A stretch of 43,816 bases of DNA, taken from the NCBI RefSeq assembly GCF_000264995.1, contig NW_006767444.1, positions 62,624 through 106,439 of the forward strand. Reading direction: 5' to 3'. The notes below the pieces were generated by a model. The model ran no database searches and was not told the DNA's origin. It worked only from the letters and a program-made list of their open reading frames with translations. The DNA comes from Punctularia strigosozonata HHB-11173 SS5 (lineage: Eukaryota; Basidiomycota; Agaricomycetes; Corticiales; Punctulariaceae). This document shows, piece by piece, positions 36,518 to 43,816 of the stretch (its first letter is position 1; the number at the start of each line of letters is the position of its first letter). The translations under genes were made by a program, and so were the position numbers.

Positions 36518-37347
36518 TCAAGCATAGTGCACGACTGCGCTGCTGGCGTACCGGCCGAAAAGAGTCTCGCCGACGCCTTCGCCAATGACGATGGAGAGGA
36601 TGAATCCGACTTGGTAGGTCCTGGAGCGACCGATAAGTATATTTGAATGGTGAATAGATGTGGAAGGCACTAACATGACTACGAGCATGAAGGCAAAACC
36701 AAGCCCCGTCTGAGCGGCTTGGATGATGCCTCGTGGTATATCGTGGGAGGGGATGAACGGTGTCGACATCCGGACAGCCATCGACTGCCGCAGCGACGCA
36801 GGGCGCTTGTAGTCGAGGTCCGGAGCGGTGTAAGACGAGTTCTTCTCCTTGAGGTCCGGGCGCTTGGATGTTGCAATGTCGGAGGAGTTGAACTTGTCGG
36901 ACAGCGCGATCTGGGCGCTGATATCGGGGTGGTCATGAGTGGGCAAGCGCAAAGAGGACAGAAGCGGCGTTGGATACTCACCGCATCCGCCAGTGAGCTT
37001 CACCCAGCGCTCGGCATGCGGCAAGCCATCGCTCGAAGATGGCAAGCAAGAACAACCCGATACATGCGCCGACCATAGCGCCAGTGCTCTTCGGAACCCA
37101 TCTATTGACATAGAAAGCAGCAACTATGTGGTTAACATTGAGATATCAGTCACAGAGATGAAACGCACCCAAGGAACCATAGAATATCGCCCGTAGTGAA
37201 GTGTAGATATGGCAGCATCTGTCCAGACTCTAACGACATTGCCCCATCCATCGACATGTCCATGCCATTACTATGAGCACCAGCAATAGATGCCAGAGTT
37301 AACGTTGATATCGCTGAAATCCATAAGGACCTTGTTGAGGGAGCCAT
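36518..37347 (-). CDS. Ctr-family copper transporter
   Basis: Exons 37347-37169, 37101-36982, 36917-36675 and 36620-36518 give 214 residues. The N-terminus has a short hydrophobic start and then a Met-rich copper-binding motif, MDMSMDGAM at residues 29-37. Helix 1 is WVPKSTGAMVGACIGLFLLA, followed by ERWLAACRALGEAHWR. A polar cytosolic loop leads to helix 2, which holds the family's M177xxxM181 copper-relay motif (FAFMLVVM). Helix 3 holds GxxxG packing (IGEGVGETLFG). This is the trimeric high-affinity Cu(I) importer fold (PF04145). The C-terminus ends HYA and lacks the Cys-His tail of some members. The first hydrophobic stretch (LWISAISTLTLASIAGA) could be a cleaved signal. Plasma membrane or vacuolar membrane location cannot be told apart. 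Confidence 0.93.
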
Positions 37348-37607: not shown

Positions 37608-40600
37608 TCAGATACCCATATGAATATAGGTAGCCCAACGACTATAATGAGCACCTCCGTCCCGAAGCTTTCTAGCCGCCGCGTCTAATGCGTACGGTAC
37701 TCGCTGCATGTCTAGACGAGGATAGCTCTTGAAGAGCTCGTCGTAAACGATCTCAGAAACCATAGGTCCATCCGCGTCGTTCATCGGCCTGAACGTGGGG
37801 TCAGCCGAGACCTCTCGGAAACCCTGGGGGACTCACCACAACGTTCCTATGACGCTCTTCACGCCCATGAACAACATCGCTGCGCCGAGATGTATCGACT
37901 CGTCAGGTTGCTCTCGGTCACCCGTAGCGCTTTCGCACGCAGCGAGGAACGCAAACAGTGTATTTGGGAGCTTCAGGCGCATCACTTCCGATACCGTCAG
38001 CTGGCCGTCTCGGAGGGTAAACCCGCTGTCAAGCGGGCTGTTGCGATCCTGGTGGCCGTGGCATGCTAGATGGATGATCGACGCGTCTCGCATCTCGTTC
38101 AAGACGTCTGCCATGCAAGGACGTATCTGCAGCTTCAAGCGCCACGCGTCGTATGGACCCTGCAGCACCTTGCGCTCGATCATATTGATCTCTTCGAGAG
38201 CGTTGGGCAGCGGAGCAGTTCCTTCTACATCTGGATCGGCGACGATCAGAAGCTTGTGCGCCGAGGTCAACGGCTGACCCGATCCTTTGCGAGCCATTAT
38301 GAGGCTCGTCAGCGTAGGAACGAACGACGAGACAACGAAGTCCGACAGGAATCGAGGCTCGTGCCCAGGCAAGCCCGCGGCATGTATGGGCAATGACGCG
38401 AATGGTCCTGCGCAGCACCACCAGATGCGAGGTCGGTCATCATAATCCGTACATTTCTGTAAAAAGTCAGCTTATGACGCATCCTTAACAGTGGACGATT
38501 CCCGCACCTGGATTCCAAGGCGCAGTACTACAGGTTCGACCACCAAGGTCCACAGCCTGCTCAATAGATTGTCCTCCTGTCGACACGCCCACATCTTGCG
38601 GTTTAACTGGAGCCTTTCTACTGTATCCAATGCTTCCTCCTGCAGGCAGCCCCGTGCGCGATGGACGCAATCCTCAAGAGATGAAACCATGCATCGAAGA
38701 TCGCTCGAGGTCACCTTCAGAAGGACATGCTCCACTCCGGGGTTACCCGCGCCCGAAACGATGAGAGCGGAAGATCCATAACGCTCGCTAGACAGCAGCA
38801 GGACGACTGGTCCGTCTGTTGCAGCCTCGGCAAGCTCCCCGAACTCCGATGGCAAGAGAACGTCCCTGAAATGTGCATAAGTACGAGCTTCTTTCACGAG
38901 TCTCTTGAATTCTTCGTGGTGTTGCCGTCGTTGGATCATCCTTTGTTCACCAGAGATGTCCGATGATTGAGTGTCGCCGTGATCCTCGATCATCCTGACA
39001 ACCGAAGCGAGATTATCTGCCATGTCTTCAGGCAAGCCAGCCAATGACACATTGAGCTGGAGCCTCTCTGCCCAGAAGATAGCTCTTCCTTGATCGAGCA
39101 TGGAGACGGCTTCCTCGACCTCTCCTATCATTAACGCGCATCCCGCTGCATCGCAGGACAAAGATGCAAATTCTCGCTTCATGGAATCTAGCCGCGACGC
39201 CAAGTCCAAACCGAGATAAGTGCAGTAAGGGAGCATGCTGATAGCGCGTCGATACGCTTTCATTGCCGTGTTAGGATCATCATGTTGCACTGCGGATATC
39301 CAGTCCTTTGCTGCCATGAATCGCTCGACGTCGGGCGCATCATGGTCCTCCGCGGATGCCTCGTAAAGGTGCATCGATCTCGACCAATCGTCCTGATCAT
39401 GCGAATGCTCAAAACGAGCCCGCAGAAGCTGGGCGAAACCTCGCAGAACCTGAGAACGGAAACCTTTTGTCGTTTGGTTATCATGCGCAAGTAGATCCTC
39501 GTGAAGCTTGATCGCCTCGTCGAGGTCAGACAGCGATGGCTCTGGATGCATCGTCGTACGCTTTCCAAGAGCCAGCACGGCCAGGAAATGGTGGTGATGC
39601 CCCCGCGGACAGTGGTTGAGTGCCTCGCGTCCCAAATCGATGGCTCGTACTATATCATCCGCGTCGCCGAAGGACTCAAAGCGAAGCTCGTGGGCGTGGG
39701 CTAAGTTGTGAAGGTCGCTGTAACGTTGTCGGTCTCGAAGGTCATCTTCGTCCAGTAGCGAAGCATACAGCTCGATGCATTGATCGAGATCGTTTCGATT
39801 CCCTAAGAAAGAGAAACGGCACGCTAAAGCTACGGCAAGCGTGCTCGTCGGGAATCGACGTTTGGCGTTCAAGGAAGGATTGAGTGCATGCCCCTCCCGA
39901 CAGAGCCGGACACCTTCGTCGAGGTCAGCCCTGCTGCCTTTAGAGCTGTCAAACGAGGTACAGAGTATGTACCCTAGCATGGAAGCAACCGCAGCCCGGC
40001 GAGGATGGGTCGGAGATTGTAAAGACAGAGCCATTCGGTAGTACAATCTAGTGTCCTCTCGGTCCTCGTCCTTCTGTCGTATTTCGTGCAGCGCACTCGT
40101 CGCGACGGCTGCTGCTAAGAGACTAGCAGGTCGATCTCTGTGACAAAAAGGGAAGATTTGAAGTGCATGTTGGGCAGACGCAACAGCTTCCAATATATGT
40201 TCGATACCGCCGTCGTGATACCGGAAAAACCTTTCGAGGGCGATGCTAAGCCTGGTGCTCAACGATGCATAGAGATGCGTGGTCTCTGAAGTCGTATCCA
40301 ACGCTTCGCGGAGAAGTGCTATAGCTCGCACGATAGATGAGGTCCCAGACGAATCTAGGTAGATGAGCGCAAGTCCGAGATCTCCCAGAATTCGCGCTCT
40401 GATAGGGCAACTGTTGTCACAGAGAGAAAGGGATTCTTCGTATAAATCGATAGCTTTGTGGAGGTCTTCCGTTAATTCCGTGAGGTACCAATGCTCGGCA
40501 GTGGCGAAAGCAAGATGGTCCAGCGCAGCAACACGGAATGAGACCGGAAGCCCTGGATGCTCTAGGACATCACTGTGCAGTCGCATACTGGCCTCCAGAT

Positions 40601-41368
40601 CTCCCATATGGCCGTGGCTTTTGTGTCGAAGTCGCAATAGCTCGGCCAGCTCGGTGTGGAGAATAGGATCCAGAGAGGATGTATTGTTCCAGTCGATGAA
40701 CAAGGTCCATTGTATGAGAGCGGTTTCCAGTTCCGTATCACTGGGCCCCAAGATTTACGACGTTTGAGAAGATAGACGAAAGAAGACAAACCTCGCCGTG
40801 TCAAATCGGTCAGTAAACGCTACGATGTTTTCATTCGCATCTTCTGAACATACACATTGGATTAAGGGTTAGTCGACTAATAGGCAGGTACGACAGTGAT
40901 CTACGCACTGTGAAGACACGAAGCGGGATGAGTCTCGCGAGGGATGTGCATGAGGAACAAGATCGTTAAGGCTTGATGTGTCGTGCAGGACGCAGGGCTT
41001 ACATGTTGTACCCGTGCCAGTGGTTCCGTTGAGAACGTGAAGTTCTGCAGTTGATCATACCCTTGGAGGCGGATCCTTCCTCGATGGGGATATCCACCCG
41101 TACCTGAATACTGATCGATTGGCCCGAGATTTACCTCAGAGAAAGCGAGAGGATCAGGTTCAGCACCGCAATCCGCACCTCAGGGCTTCGACCCAACTTC
41201 GAACAAGCGCCGAGAAAGGGGCACTTGCCTGACTCTATTGGAAGAAGTGAGCTCCGGTTGATAGGTGGCTAGCATCGCGATGCTAGCATGGGAGCTCGAA
41301 TTCTTGGCGACAGGCAACTCTGGTAGCATTGCAGCACGTACATCCGTTTTCCCATACCTACCGACCAT
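37608..41368 (-). CDS. TPR-CHAT caspase-like protein
   Basis: Well-supported exons in transcript order are 41178-40909, 40843-40792, 40740-38508, 38456-37837 and 37788-37608. The frame needs one more base from an upstream exon. A 7 bp exon at 41368-41362 with a GTAGGT donor fits and gives 1120 residues, but it is tentative. Residues about 1-105 match no domain I know (GPIDQYSGTGGYPHRGRIRL, TTHQALTILFLMHIPRE). A long TPR-like array of about 600 residues follows (YASLSTRLSIALERFFRYHD, DLDEGVRLCREGHALNPSLN, DLDQCIELYASLLDEDDLRD, DIVRAIDLGREALNHCPRGH). The CHAT domain starts near 740: PRIWWCCAGPFASLPIHAAG, then HLACHGHQD with the catalytic His (codon 38058-38060), then FLAACESATGD with the catalytic Cys (37935-37937). 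The C-terminus ends WATYIHMGI. CHAT is a caspase-fold protease family; both dyad residues are present, so activity is plausible. In bacteria TPR-CHAT proteins act as immune proteases. The target of the fungal protein is unknown. Confidence 0.9.
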
Positions 41369-41582: not shown

Positions 41583-41901
41583 GTGTAACGGAGTACTCCG
41601 TAGTTTAACCGTAGAATAAACTTAGAACGGTCGCGGCTCCGCCGCGACTGAGAAATCACAATGATGACGCGCCCGTTGGGCGCCATATGGTCAAACCTTG
41701 CGTGCTTAACTCTACCACCCGGGCGCCTGATATCTGAGATACGATTATCTCTGATATCTATGGTGTCTCGAATATAAAAGACTCGATTGCACGCCTGTAT
41801 CTACATTCTAATTTGCTATACTACCGGATCCTGCTCTGTTGCCTGCGAGGCGCGTCGTGACACCGCCACCGCCCGCCTCGCCCCCTCACGCCTATATTAC
41901 A
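41583..41901 (+). repeat. Probable 5' LTR
   Basis: It starts TGTAACGG and ends ATTACA, giving TGTAA/TTACA terminal inverted bases and the TG...CA rule, with a length of about 319 bp. A TATA box (gaatataaaagactc) lies near 41773. Hairpins include CGGAGTACTCCG near its start, gtcgcggc-tcc-gccgcgac at about 41630-41648 and a 13 bp imperfect palindrome at 41729-41758. Exact edges need the second LTR. Confidence 0.6.
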
Positions 41902-41931
41902 CTTTTTTGAGCACCCTAAGAGGTTAGTACA

Positions 41932-43359
41932 ATGCCTGTAGATACAGTAACCGACGCTACGCTACCGCGTACGTTGAGAAGTGGGACGATCCTACCGGAC
42001 GTCCGAGTAGAGGGCAGACCGCCCAGAGATCGGCGCCAGGCGCCGAAGAGTACCGTAGATACTACGGCCAATCAGAATGATCTGAATGATGACATCAGAT
42101 CAGAGAGCCATGTGAGCAGTATTACCCAGACTTACGGTTCTGAACCGGAAGAGCGGCAAGGAATGAAAGACCTTGCGCGCACGCTGTGGGAAAGAGGCGG
42201 CAATATGCCGATCCGAATTAATGATATCAACAATTTGATCAAGCTAACTGAAGATAAGGAAAATGACACTTACCTGTACCTCATGCTACTGAAAAGGCGC
42301 ATGAAGCGAGGGAAAGTAAAGGATATCGGCGATCCGAGGTGGTTTGACATCGCGCCAACTGAAGGACTCGAGGCGGCGCAAGGCCAAACACCGCCCGGAG
42401 AACCGCAGGGCGAGCCGAGCAACAGCGGGAAACGTGACAAACGGCGGATGACGCTTCAGGAACACCTGATGATCACAGAGCATGAGGCTACGGGCCTGAG
42501 AGCCGAGACCGACCACGAGGTGTCCAAGGCCGAAGATGCTGAGGATGATCGTCGCGACATACCGCCGCACATGCACAGGATCCCTAGCCGGGCCGGAACA
42601 GCCCCAGAAGCCAGCCGATATGCCGGCGATTGGCGCATGTTATCACGAATCTCTTCTCCCAGGGCTCAGACCGTACCTATCGAATTCATCAGGAGACGTA
42701 ACGGACGAGACCCAGGAGGGAGCTCGGACAGCGACCCAGATGATAATGGGGACCGGCGCACTCCGCGGGGAGGGCCAAATCGCAATAGGAGGGGAGAACC
42801 CCCAATAGACTCTCGGAGGAACCACGGGGCCGCGCCAGGCGGAGACCCCGGATCAGGATCTGAGGACGACAGCCGTGAGAACAGAAGTCTCCCCGGGCGC
42901 GAACCTCCGGAGAGACCGAACATTCCCAATCGCGAGGGCTCGTACATCCCCATGCAAGAGGATCTTTCTGCAATAACATTGAGAGAACTATATCATAAAA
43001 GGATTCTTAGAATGTTTAAAAGATATGTAGACTCCTATAGAGTCCCTTCAAAGAACATAAAGAATCAGAAGCCGGCTCAACCTAAGGAGTGGCAGGGGGA
43101 CGATGATGCCGATCGCTTCCTTGATTGGTTAGATCTATTATTAAACTTTTTCATGCTCACCGGAATGACCGGAGAAGAACACGAGGACGAACGGGCCGCG
43201 TTTACGACAGGATTCCTGTCGTTGAAGCCTAGGCATTGGTGGCAAACTAAAATAATTAGAGCCACGGCGCTTGCAGATCCTGTTCCCTTCAAGGAAGGGA
43301 TCATTAAGTTATTCGATAGGTTTGTAGTTACATTAACGCCGGTGTCACGCGAACTGTAG
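41932..43359 (+). CDS. Gag-like protein of LTR retrotransposon (fossil)
   Basis: This frame of about 475 residues starts 31 bp after the LTR. The first 330 residues are charged and low in complexity, with Arg/Gly/Pro/Asp runs. The last about 110 residues look like a retrotransposon gag core (KEWQGDDDADRFLDWLDLLL, LKPRHWWQTKIIRATALADP). No zinc knuckle is seen in this frame. It belongs to the mobile element and is not a host gene. Confidence 0.7.
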   Translation: MPVDTVTDATLPRTLRSGTILPDVRVEGRPPRDRRQAPKSTVDTTANQNDLNDDIRSESHVSSITQTYGSEPEERQGMKDLARTLWERGGNMPIRINDINNLIKLTEDKENDTYLYLMLLKRRMKRGKVKDIGDPRWFDIAPTEGLEAAQGQTPPGEPQGEPSNSGKRDKRRMTLQEHLMITEHEATGLRAETDHEVSKAEDAEDDRRDIPPHMHRIPSRAGTAPEASRYAGDWRMLSRISSPRAQTVPIEFIRRRNGRDPGGSSDSDPDDNGDRRTPRGGPNRNRRGEPPIDSRRNHGAAPGGDPGSGSEDDSRENRSLPGREPPERPNIPNREGSYIPMQEDLSAITLRELYHKRILRMFKRYVDSYRVPSKNIKNQKPAQPKEWQGDDDADRFLDWLDLLLNFFMLTGMTGEEHEDERAAFTTGFLSLKPRHWWQTKIIRATALADPVPFKEGIIKLFDRFVVTLTPVSREL

Positions 43360-43548
43360 TGCTAGTATATAGTCACACAGTTGCCTAGGGTCCCGGTCTA
43401 TCTAAGTCGGGGATGACCTAGTTGAATCAGGAGAAAGAAATGGGCCGCTTGAATGTATTCACTTAAACAGAGAACTACGCTCTGTCCTTTTGTCTGTACT
43501 GGAAATCCGTTCCCACGCTTATAGGGAAGTTACTGAGTATGTTGTCGG

Positions 43549-43773
43549 TCTTCTGGAAGCGTCTTGTCGCTTCAATGTATCCTATTTCCTATCTTCTGGA
43601 AGCGTCTTGTCGCTTCGGCGTATCCTAATTCCTATGTCGTATGTCCTGGAGCGATACTTAGATCTATTGCCTAAGTCAACACTCAAATATCTTCCTAATT
43701 CCTATGTCGTATGTCCTGGAGTGATACTTAGATCTATTGCCTAAGTCAACACTCAAAAGCGTCTTGTCGCTTT
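43549..43773 (+). repeat. Nested tandem repeats after the gag-like frame
   Basis: A 25 bp word beginning tcttctggaagcgtcttgtc occurs at 43549-43573 and 43592-43616, with a shorter copy at about 43756-43773. A 64 bp unit beginning cctaattcctatgtcgtatg occurs at 43624-43687 and 43694-43757 (period 70, one difference noticed). They lie inside the element, between the gag-like frame and the window edge. Confidence 0.85.
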
Positions 43774-43816
43774 AACTGTCAGAGTACGCGCTCGGAGCTC
43801 CTAGGAGCGGCGCGGA

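What the first reader, a model, noticed from the sequence alone, without database searches (positions are those of the whole stretch)
37608..41368. TPR-CHAT protease candidate with an unassigned N-terminal region
Seen: an array of TPR-like helices feeds into a CHAT domain with both catalytic motifs, HLACHG and AACESA. Known: CHAT is a caspase-fold family, and bacterial TPR-CHAT proteins are proteases in immunity and cell-death pathways. Inferred: this may be a fungal sensor-protease in which TPRs sense a ligand and unleash cleavage. About 105 N-terminal residues match nothing I know and could be the sensor or a localisation module. The target is not evident: no gasdermin-like gene is seen nearby.
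Basis: partly seen in the sequence, partly recalled or inferred. Interest (0 to 1): 0.75.

Follow-up and report, generated by a model that had tools for sequence, protein, structure and literature searches.

The report
Fungal TPR-CHAT protease, large family
This is a real fungal gene for a repeat-built sensor arm joined to a caspase-like protease, but it is one of about 79 similar copies in the same genome and belongs to a family already known, so it is ordinary as a gene even though its trigger and target are unknown.

Summary
A minus-strand gene ends at 37608 and encodes TPR-like repeats followed by a CHAT domain (Pfam E 2.6e-25) with the His/Cys dyad. It reads as five exons with four short introns and a 1042-residue protein. 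The "105 unassigned N-terminal residues" are not supported. The 41368-41183 frame has no significant match in 20 paralogous loci and no coding signal. The three closest paralogues share clear homology only from about the splice acceptor at 40741. TPR-like units start about 30 residues later.

The gene is one of 79 CHAT places in its 33.6-Mb genome. The dyad Cys is kept in 78 of 79, the His in all 78 places whose fetched stretch covers it. The fold resembles Craspase TPR-CHAT/Csx29 and caspases, at modest TM-scores. CHAT is more conserved than the TPR part in 120 of 120 paralogue pairs. No neighbour recurs among 21 loci. The genome has no Pfam gasdermin match (insensitive).

Best reading: a latent cysteine protease of fungal immunity or regulated cell death, with a fast-diverging TPR sensor. 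A new member of a known kind. Ligand and substrate are unknown.

The parts
40909..40951 (-). Candidate exon 1 (ATG 40951-40949), 14 codons plus one base; tentative
   Evidence: In-phase splice model with intron 40908-40844 (GTGCGT...TTCAG; a CTAAC in it is seen); not conserved in paralogues, so only a candidate
40792..40843 (-). Candidate exon 2, encodes DANENIVAFTDRFDTA
   Evidence: In-phase model; RFD.. resembles RFSLAE and RFDLDE read by eye in the same position of L010 and L017; weak
40741..40791 (-). 51-nt intron (GTTTGT...CCCAG); the acceptor position is shared by the subfamily
   Evidence: Homology with L025, L010 and L017 begins at about this acceptor
38508..40740 (-). Exon 3: TPR-like helical array (744 codons) plus the strands that lead into CHAT
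   Evidence: Open frame; TPR-S and TPR_2 sub-threshold; TPR-like units from residue 29 of the exon; low-confidence model, helices then three strands from residue 645
40557..40655 (-). First clear TPR-like unit (envelope, exon residues 29-61)
   Evidence: Unit profile, i-Evalue 1.5e-6 in a four-sequence database
38457..38507 (-). 51-nt in-frame intron holding a TGA; if retained the product ends before the CHAT exon
   Evidence: GTGCGG...GCTGAC...TACAG; frame rejoined KCTDYDDRPRIWWCCAG; L010 and L017 read through here in one frame
37837..38456 (-). Exon 4: core of the CHAT domain with both catalytic residues
   Evidence: PF12770 E 2.6e-25; NF041237 Csx29 E 2.9e-11, 43 bits against a cut-off of 300; fold match to Craspase and caspases
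38058..38060 (-). His of the dyad (second His of HLACHG)
   Evidence: Invariant in 19 of 19 rows of A1 and 21 of 21 rows of A2; coordinates computed from the alignment position
37935..37937 (-). Cys of the dyad (AACESA)
   Evidence: Invariant in A1 and A2; coordinates computed from the alignment position
37789..37836 (-). 48-nt intron (GTGAGT...GGCTGAC...TTCAG)
37608..37788 (-). Exon 5: C-terminal end of CHAT (PMNDADGP...IHMGI) and stop
   Evidence: In-phase continuation
41183..41368 (-). 62-aa frame the finding takes as the start; judged not to be part of the gene
   Evidence: No paralogue match, no Pfam match, non-coding score

Best explanation
The gene encodes an intracellular sensor-protease. 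A TPR superhelix holds a caspase-fold CHAT cysteine protease (His909/Cys950 in the 1042-residue model) latent until a ligand binds; the protease then cleaves a cellular target that starts a defence or regulated-death response. It is one of about 79 paralogous places in the genome; in the genes compared, the TPR part diverges faster than the protease part, as expected of a receptor repertoire against changing non-self or invader ligands. Shown: architecture, gene model from 40740 to 37608, dyad conservation, caspase-like predicted fold, expansion and faster sensor divergence. Inferred: latency, ligand binding, cleavage, and the immune or death role. Not identified: ligand and substrate.
For: CHAT by Pfam. 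80 CHAT matches genome-wide, merged to 79 places. Dyad Cys in 78 of 79 places (one, L039, has Arg) and His in all 78 places whose stretch covers it. Dyad invariant with 20 bacterial relatives, 19 actinobacterial and one Aminicenantes. PDB relatives by profile are Craspase TPR-CHAT, E 7.4e-9, and Csx29, E 4.2e-8, with His and Cys aligned to CHG and CES/CET. Fold: 17 chains at E <= 0.001, 15 of them CHAT proteins (Craspase/Csx29, DdvA, SAVED-CHAT) and two caspases. CHAT identity exceeds TPR identity in 120 of 120 pairs of 16 genes, medians 48% and 28%; in the four pairs with finite dS in both parts among the 22 pairs printed, dN is below dS in both parts, i.e. constraint rather than decay. Precedent: a TPR-bearing CHAT protease of P. 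anserina activates a fungal gasdermin (PMC12881547, passages).
Against: No ligand, substrate, expression or activity data. No partner gene recurs beside the 21 loci surveyed, and no Pfam gasdermin is in the genome (PF04598 may not see fungal gasdermins). Faster TPR divergence can be relaxed constraint rather than selection for new ligands; dS is saturated for most printed pairs. The CHAT model has mean pLDDT 72 with the loop after Cys under 50, and its TM-scores against the 17 best PDB chains are only 0.34-0.48 by query length. The TPR model has mean pLDDT 46. Most paralogues are not in tight clusters (19 of 79 within 30 kb of another, 10.6 expected at random, up to 28 in 1000 draws).
Confidence: 0.55

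Rival explanations
1. The protein is a regulated housekeeping or developmental protease (separase- or metacaspase-like work such as cell-cycle or stress processing), not an immune receptor.
For: The caspase-like fold fits any regulated proteolysis; the closest paralogue pairs are under constraint.
Against: 79 paralogous places and fast-diverging TPRs are not how single-substrate housekeeping proteases usually look (general knowledge). Orthologues in other fungi could not be surveyed, as no fungal collection is held.
Confidence: 0.2
2. The gene is a decaying or silent copy: the frame is still open but the native 5' end was lost near the retrotransposon that starts about 41584.
For: The 5' end is not conserved with the three closest paralogues, a stop directly precedes the TPR exon with no in-frame ATG between it and the acceptor, and an LTR-like start with a gag-like frame lies about 630 bases upstream of the candidate ATG.
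Against: More than 1000 codons are open with four in-phase introns, the dyad is intact, and an in-phase start exists.
Confidence: 0.15
3. The CHAT part is a pseudo-enzyme used for assembly, with the TPRs doing the work.
For: The dyad geometry could not be measured in the model.
Against: His and Cys are kept in nearly all of 79 places and in 20 bacterial relatives, which a scaffold would not need.
Confidence: 0.07

Closest known systems
Fungal TPR-bearing CHAT protease that activates a gasdermin (Podospora anserina two-gene cluster; PMC12881547 and PMC10197012, passages seen)
   Same: TPR repeats plus CHAT caspase-like protease in one fungal protein
   Different: There the protease sits beside its gasdermin gene; here no gasdermin was found nearby or by PF04598 in the genome. 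No direct sequence comparison could be run.
Craspase TPR-CHAT / Csx29 (PDB 7zoq, 7y9x, 8d9g and others)
   Same: TPR-CHAT order, caspase fold, His and Cys aligned
   Different: Csx29 is solved with the Cas7-11/gRAMP CRISPR effector (titles); NCBIfam's Csx29 model scores 43 bits against a cut-off of 300. Not a Csx29.
Actinobacterial CHAT proteins (L086-L103, L105)
   Same: 33-40% identity over the CHAT exon, same invariant residues
   Different: Bacterial, function untested. A TPR part was tested in four of them and shows only in L093, sub-threshold. PADLOC has no model for the two scanned.
CHAT expansion in Rhizoctonia solani AG8 (PMC4014442, passages seen)
   Same: CHAT named there as the most abundant peptidase domain, with abundant TPRs, in a basidiomycete
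   Different: That paper gives no gene-level mechanism in the passages seen

Membership tests
CHAT (PF12770) cysteine proteases | Profile match above the curated cut-off | tested here: met
   89.9 bits against 24
CHAT (PF12770) cysteine proteases | His and Cys dyad at the ends of the two core strands | tested here: met
   Sequence. Model: strands 125-133 and 166-172 hold His131 and Cys172 at or near their ends
CHAT (PF12770) cysteine proteases | Dyad residues in contact in the fold | tested here: inconclusive
   Coordinates not available to measure; the loop after Cys has pLDDT under 50
CHAT (PF12770) cysteine proteases | Proteolytic activity | not testable with these tools
   Needs bench work
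TPR-CHAT proteins | TPR array directly N-terminal to CHAT | tested here: met
   Met on combined, individually weak evidence: TPR-S E 6.5e-5, sub-threshold; unit profile hits; helical low-confidence model; a paralogue, L021, reaches 58.5 bits for TPR-S against a cut-off of 27.6
Gasdermin-controlling fungal CHAT protease | Gasdermin gene within about 10 kb | tested here: inconclusive
   None by PF04598 in the whole genome, but that model is not known to detect fungal gasdermins and the control rang only in E. coli, below the cut-off; neighbours share no recurrent ORF
Fungal NLR with CHAT effector domain | NACHT or NB-ARC domain in the same protein | tested here: not met
   No NACHT or NB-ARC in the window exons or in the 14 paralogue and 4 bacterial ORFs scanned. 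The 23 NACHT and 10 NB-ARC matches in the genome are all over 10 kb from any CHAT place (nearest about 13.5 kb, positions compared by eye)
Csx29 / Craspase | NCBIfam Csx29 cut-off | tested here: not met
   43 bits against 300

The most novel reading that the evidence does not exclude
The fungus uses stand-alone TPR-CHAT sensor-proteases, not NLRs, as its largest receptor-protease repertoire (79 CHAT places against 23 NACHT and 10 NB-ARC matches, two of which are the same places, found by the same kind of search), each with its own fast-diverging TPR sensor and all feeding targets that are encoded elsewhere in the genome and are not gasdermins. That would be a gasdermin-independent, one-protein immune receptor system.
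Probability: 0.25. Interest if true: 0.6.

Novelty: new member of a known kind. Interest (0 to 1): 0.27.

Why it matters
As a single gene it matters little: it is one of many in a known family. As a family, it is a large unassigned repertoire of conserved proteases with diversified sensor arms, and finding one ligand or one substrate would say what such expanded CHAT families do in fungi.

Tried and rejected
Rejected: the 105-residue N-terminal domain. A GPxDQ-like stretch lies upstream in the window, L010 and L017, but blastp-short gave E 0.30 and 0.57 for the two pairs listed, and its frame scores as non-coding in the window (41179-40911, -0.19), so I did not use it. Rejected: a recurrent partner gene. 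One search listed shared ORF groups; one search found 0 pairs among 768 ORFs (of 1321, 70 aa or more) that lie outside the CHAT genes and in non-overlapping loci. Csx29 membership rejected. A tree of 91 CHAT sequences places the window with L025, L017 and L010 (support 0.80), but 19 of 20 bacterial sequences fall inside the fungal ancestor node, so origin cannot be read from it. The viral contig scan gave no relative. PADLOC had no model. The single-sequence fold of the TPR exon is low confidence (mean pLDDT 46) and was not searched.

Rows dropped: L011 and L026 were left out of A1 because CHAT is split there between frames; L106 (a 37-residue match) was left out of A2; 5 of 57 small CHAT stretches under 120 residues, L011, L026 and the copy at C5:290089 were left out of the tree; the divergence test used 16 of the 21 genes with long loci, and its script printed 22 of 120 pairs. 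Pfam was run on the window exons and 18 ORFs from paralogous (14) or bacterial (4) loci, exon by exon, not on all 79. The neighbour survey covers 21 of 79 places. In one search two labelled rows (CHAT exon, exonB) were scored in the wrong frame and are not used; one search gives the CHAT exon in frame.

Literature: searches. Papers seen only as found passages: PMC12881547, PMC10197012, PMC4014442, PMC9815663, PMC8195603 (the last holds no whole-word CHAT and was not used). In the listings of the searches for 'CHAT domain' with Basidiomycota or basidiomycete, no paper devoted to basidiomycete TPR-CHAT expansion appeared; the library lacks most subscription journals. Recalled, not from a call: the CTGAC/CTAAC branch-site form and which His of HLACHG is catalytic.

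Full report
What is there. The window is G000:C12:62624-106439 of a 33.57-Mb assembly in 32 contigs. Short GT-AG introns and the gene family suggest a basidiomycete fungus; that is inference, and no taxonomic test was run. On the minus strand a frame of 759 codons (38472-40751) lies before a second frame (37833-38393) that holds HLACHG and AACESA. The second frame is CHAT by Pfam (E 2.6e-25). The first gives only sub-threshold TPR hits, the best being TPR-S at E 6.5e-5.

Gene model. Removing four short GT-AG introns (65, 51, 51 and 48 bases) gives one open frame of 1042 codons from ATG 40951 to the stop at 37608. The introns 38507-38457 and 37836-37789 end in CTGAC...CAG, a form I recall as a fungal branch site, and the first restores text that L010 and L017 read through without an intron. 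The acceptor at 40741 is about where homology with the three nearest paralogues begins. The two 5'-most exons are candidates only; the in-frame ATG inside the TPR exon (MGDLEAS) is another possible start.

The N-terminal claim. The frame 41368-41183 matches none of the gene-strand ORFs of 20 paralogous loci (best outside itself E 0.24 over 23 residues) and no Pfam family. Its hexamer score is -0.19 per pair, against +0.15 for the TPR exon and -0.21 and -0.23 for the wrong frames of that exon; none of 682 pieces of the TPR exon of the same length score that low. The test was trained mostly on TPR exons, and the CHAT exon scores about zero, so it weakens the claim rather than excluding it. TPR-like units start at residue 29 of the TPR exon (profile from four units). 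In the best model only 32 residues precede that exon.

The family. Pfam CHAT rings 80 times in the genome (a lower bound), or 79 places after joining pieces. The dyad Cys is present in 78 of 79 places and is Arg in L039. The His is present in all 78 places whose stretch covers it; the L085 stretch does not. In the extra copy in L015 (C5:290089) both residues are there but in different frames. The nearest paralogues are L025, L017 and L010, with CHAT 57-62% identical to the window and TPR exon 39-41%. Across 16 genes, CHAT is more conserved than the TPR part in 120 of 120 pairs, medians 48% and 28%. 19 of 79 places lie within 30 kb of another, against 10.6 expected for uniform placement (maximum 28 in 1000 draws), so clustering is mild.

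Fold. AlphaFold2 on the CHAT exon with 20 bacterial relatives gives mean pLDDT 72 and pTM 0.69; His131 and Cys172 fall in or at the end of strands 125-133 and 166-172. Foldseek against the PDB returns DdvA (a CHAT-containing anti-sigma factor), Craspase TPR-CHAT, Csx29, SAVED-CHAT and two caspases at E 2.3e-5 to 9.2e-4. TM-scores by query length are only 0.34-0.48 for these 17 chains, which fits a partial, medium-confidence model. Profile search against PDB sequences agrees: 7zoq E 7.4e-9 and Csx29 E 4.2e-8, with the dyad aligned. The distance between the dyad residues was not measured.

Relatives and neighbours. The one genome-contig scan gave 21 loci: 20 actinobacterial and one Aminicenantes. 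His and Cys are invariant in the 21 rows of A2, i.e. the window plus 20 of those loci. Of four bacterial ORFs scanned, only L093 shows a (sub-threshold) TPR hit. No neighbouring gene recurs among the 21 fungal loci surveyed: 0 similar pairs among 768 ORFs outside the CHAT genes. Downstream lies a Ctr-type copper transporter. Upstream lies an LTR-like start and a frame that looks gag-like by eye, without a Pfam match. PF04598 gasdermin has no match in the genome. NACHT rings 23 times, 18 over the cut-off, and NB-ARC 10 times, none within 10 kb of a CHAT place by the positions. These are exon-level lower bounds, not NLR gene counts.

Known context. Reviews state that CHAT proteases, some with TPRs, control fungal gasdermins, that 19% of fungal gasdermin genes lie within 10 kb of a CHAT gene, that gasdermins are more abundant in Ascomycota, and that a TPR-bearing CHAT protease of P. 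anserina activates its gasdermin (PMC10197012 and PMC12881547, passages). CHAT was named the most abundant peptidase domain in Rhizoctonia solani AG8 in 2014 (PMC4014442, passages).

Mechanism. The best reading is a latent cysteine protease opened by ligand binding to the TPR superhelix, acting in non-self response or regulated death. Architecture, dyad conservation, predicted fold and expansion are shown. Latency, ligand, cleavage and biological role are inferred. The intron 38507-38457 is a multiple of three and holds a stop, so its retention would give a TPR-only product; whether this is used is unknown.

Verdict. A real, intact-looking gene, correctly recognised as TPR-CHAT, with an overcalled N-terminus. 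It is an ordinary member of a known and expanded family; the open question (ligand and substrate) is that of the family, not of this gene.

Noticed in passing
window 41584-43816: LTR-like start (TGTAACGGAGTACTCCGTAG, single copy in the window) followed by a 475-aa frame that looks gag-like by eye (41932-43359, no Pfam match), running towards the window end, about 630 bases upstream of the candidate start codon.
   Followed up: partly
window 36518-37347: Ctr-type copper transporter gene on the minus strand just downstream of the CHAT gene (PF04145 E 5.1e-11 for 36521-37123); the Met-rich frame 37150-37347 as its first exon is inference.
   Followed up: partly
window 38457-38507: The 51-base intron between TPR and CHAT exons is in frame and holds a TGA; L010 and L017 read through this junction in one frame.
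   Followed up: no
L039 (G000:C14:141121-141711): The one CHAT place whose dyad Cys is replaced (STRESA), a possible inactive paralogue.
   Followed up: no
L015 1152-1824 (G000:C5 about 290 kb): A second CHAT copy next to an intact one, with His and Cys in different frames (intron or break not told apart).
   Followed up: no
L021 2916-5405: Paralogue whose repeats match the Pfam TPR-S (sensor) model well above its cut-off (58.5 bits against 27.6).
   Followed up: no
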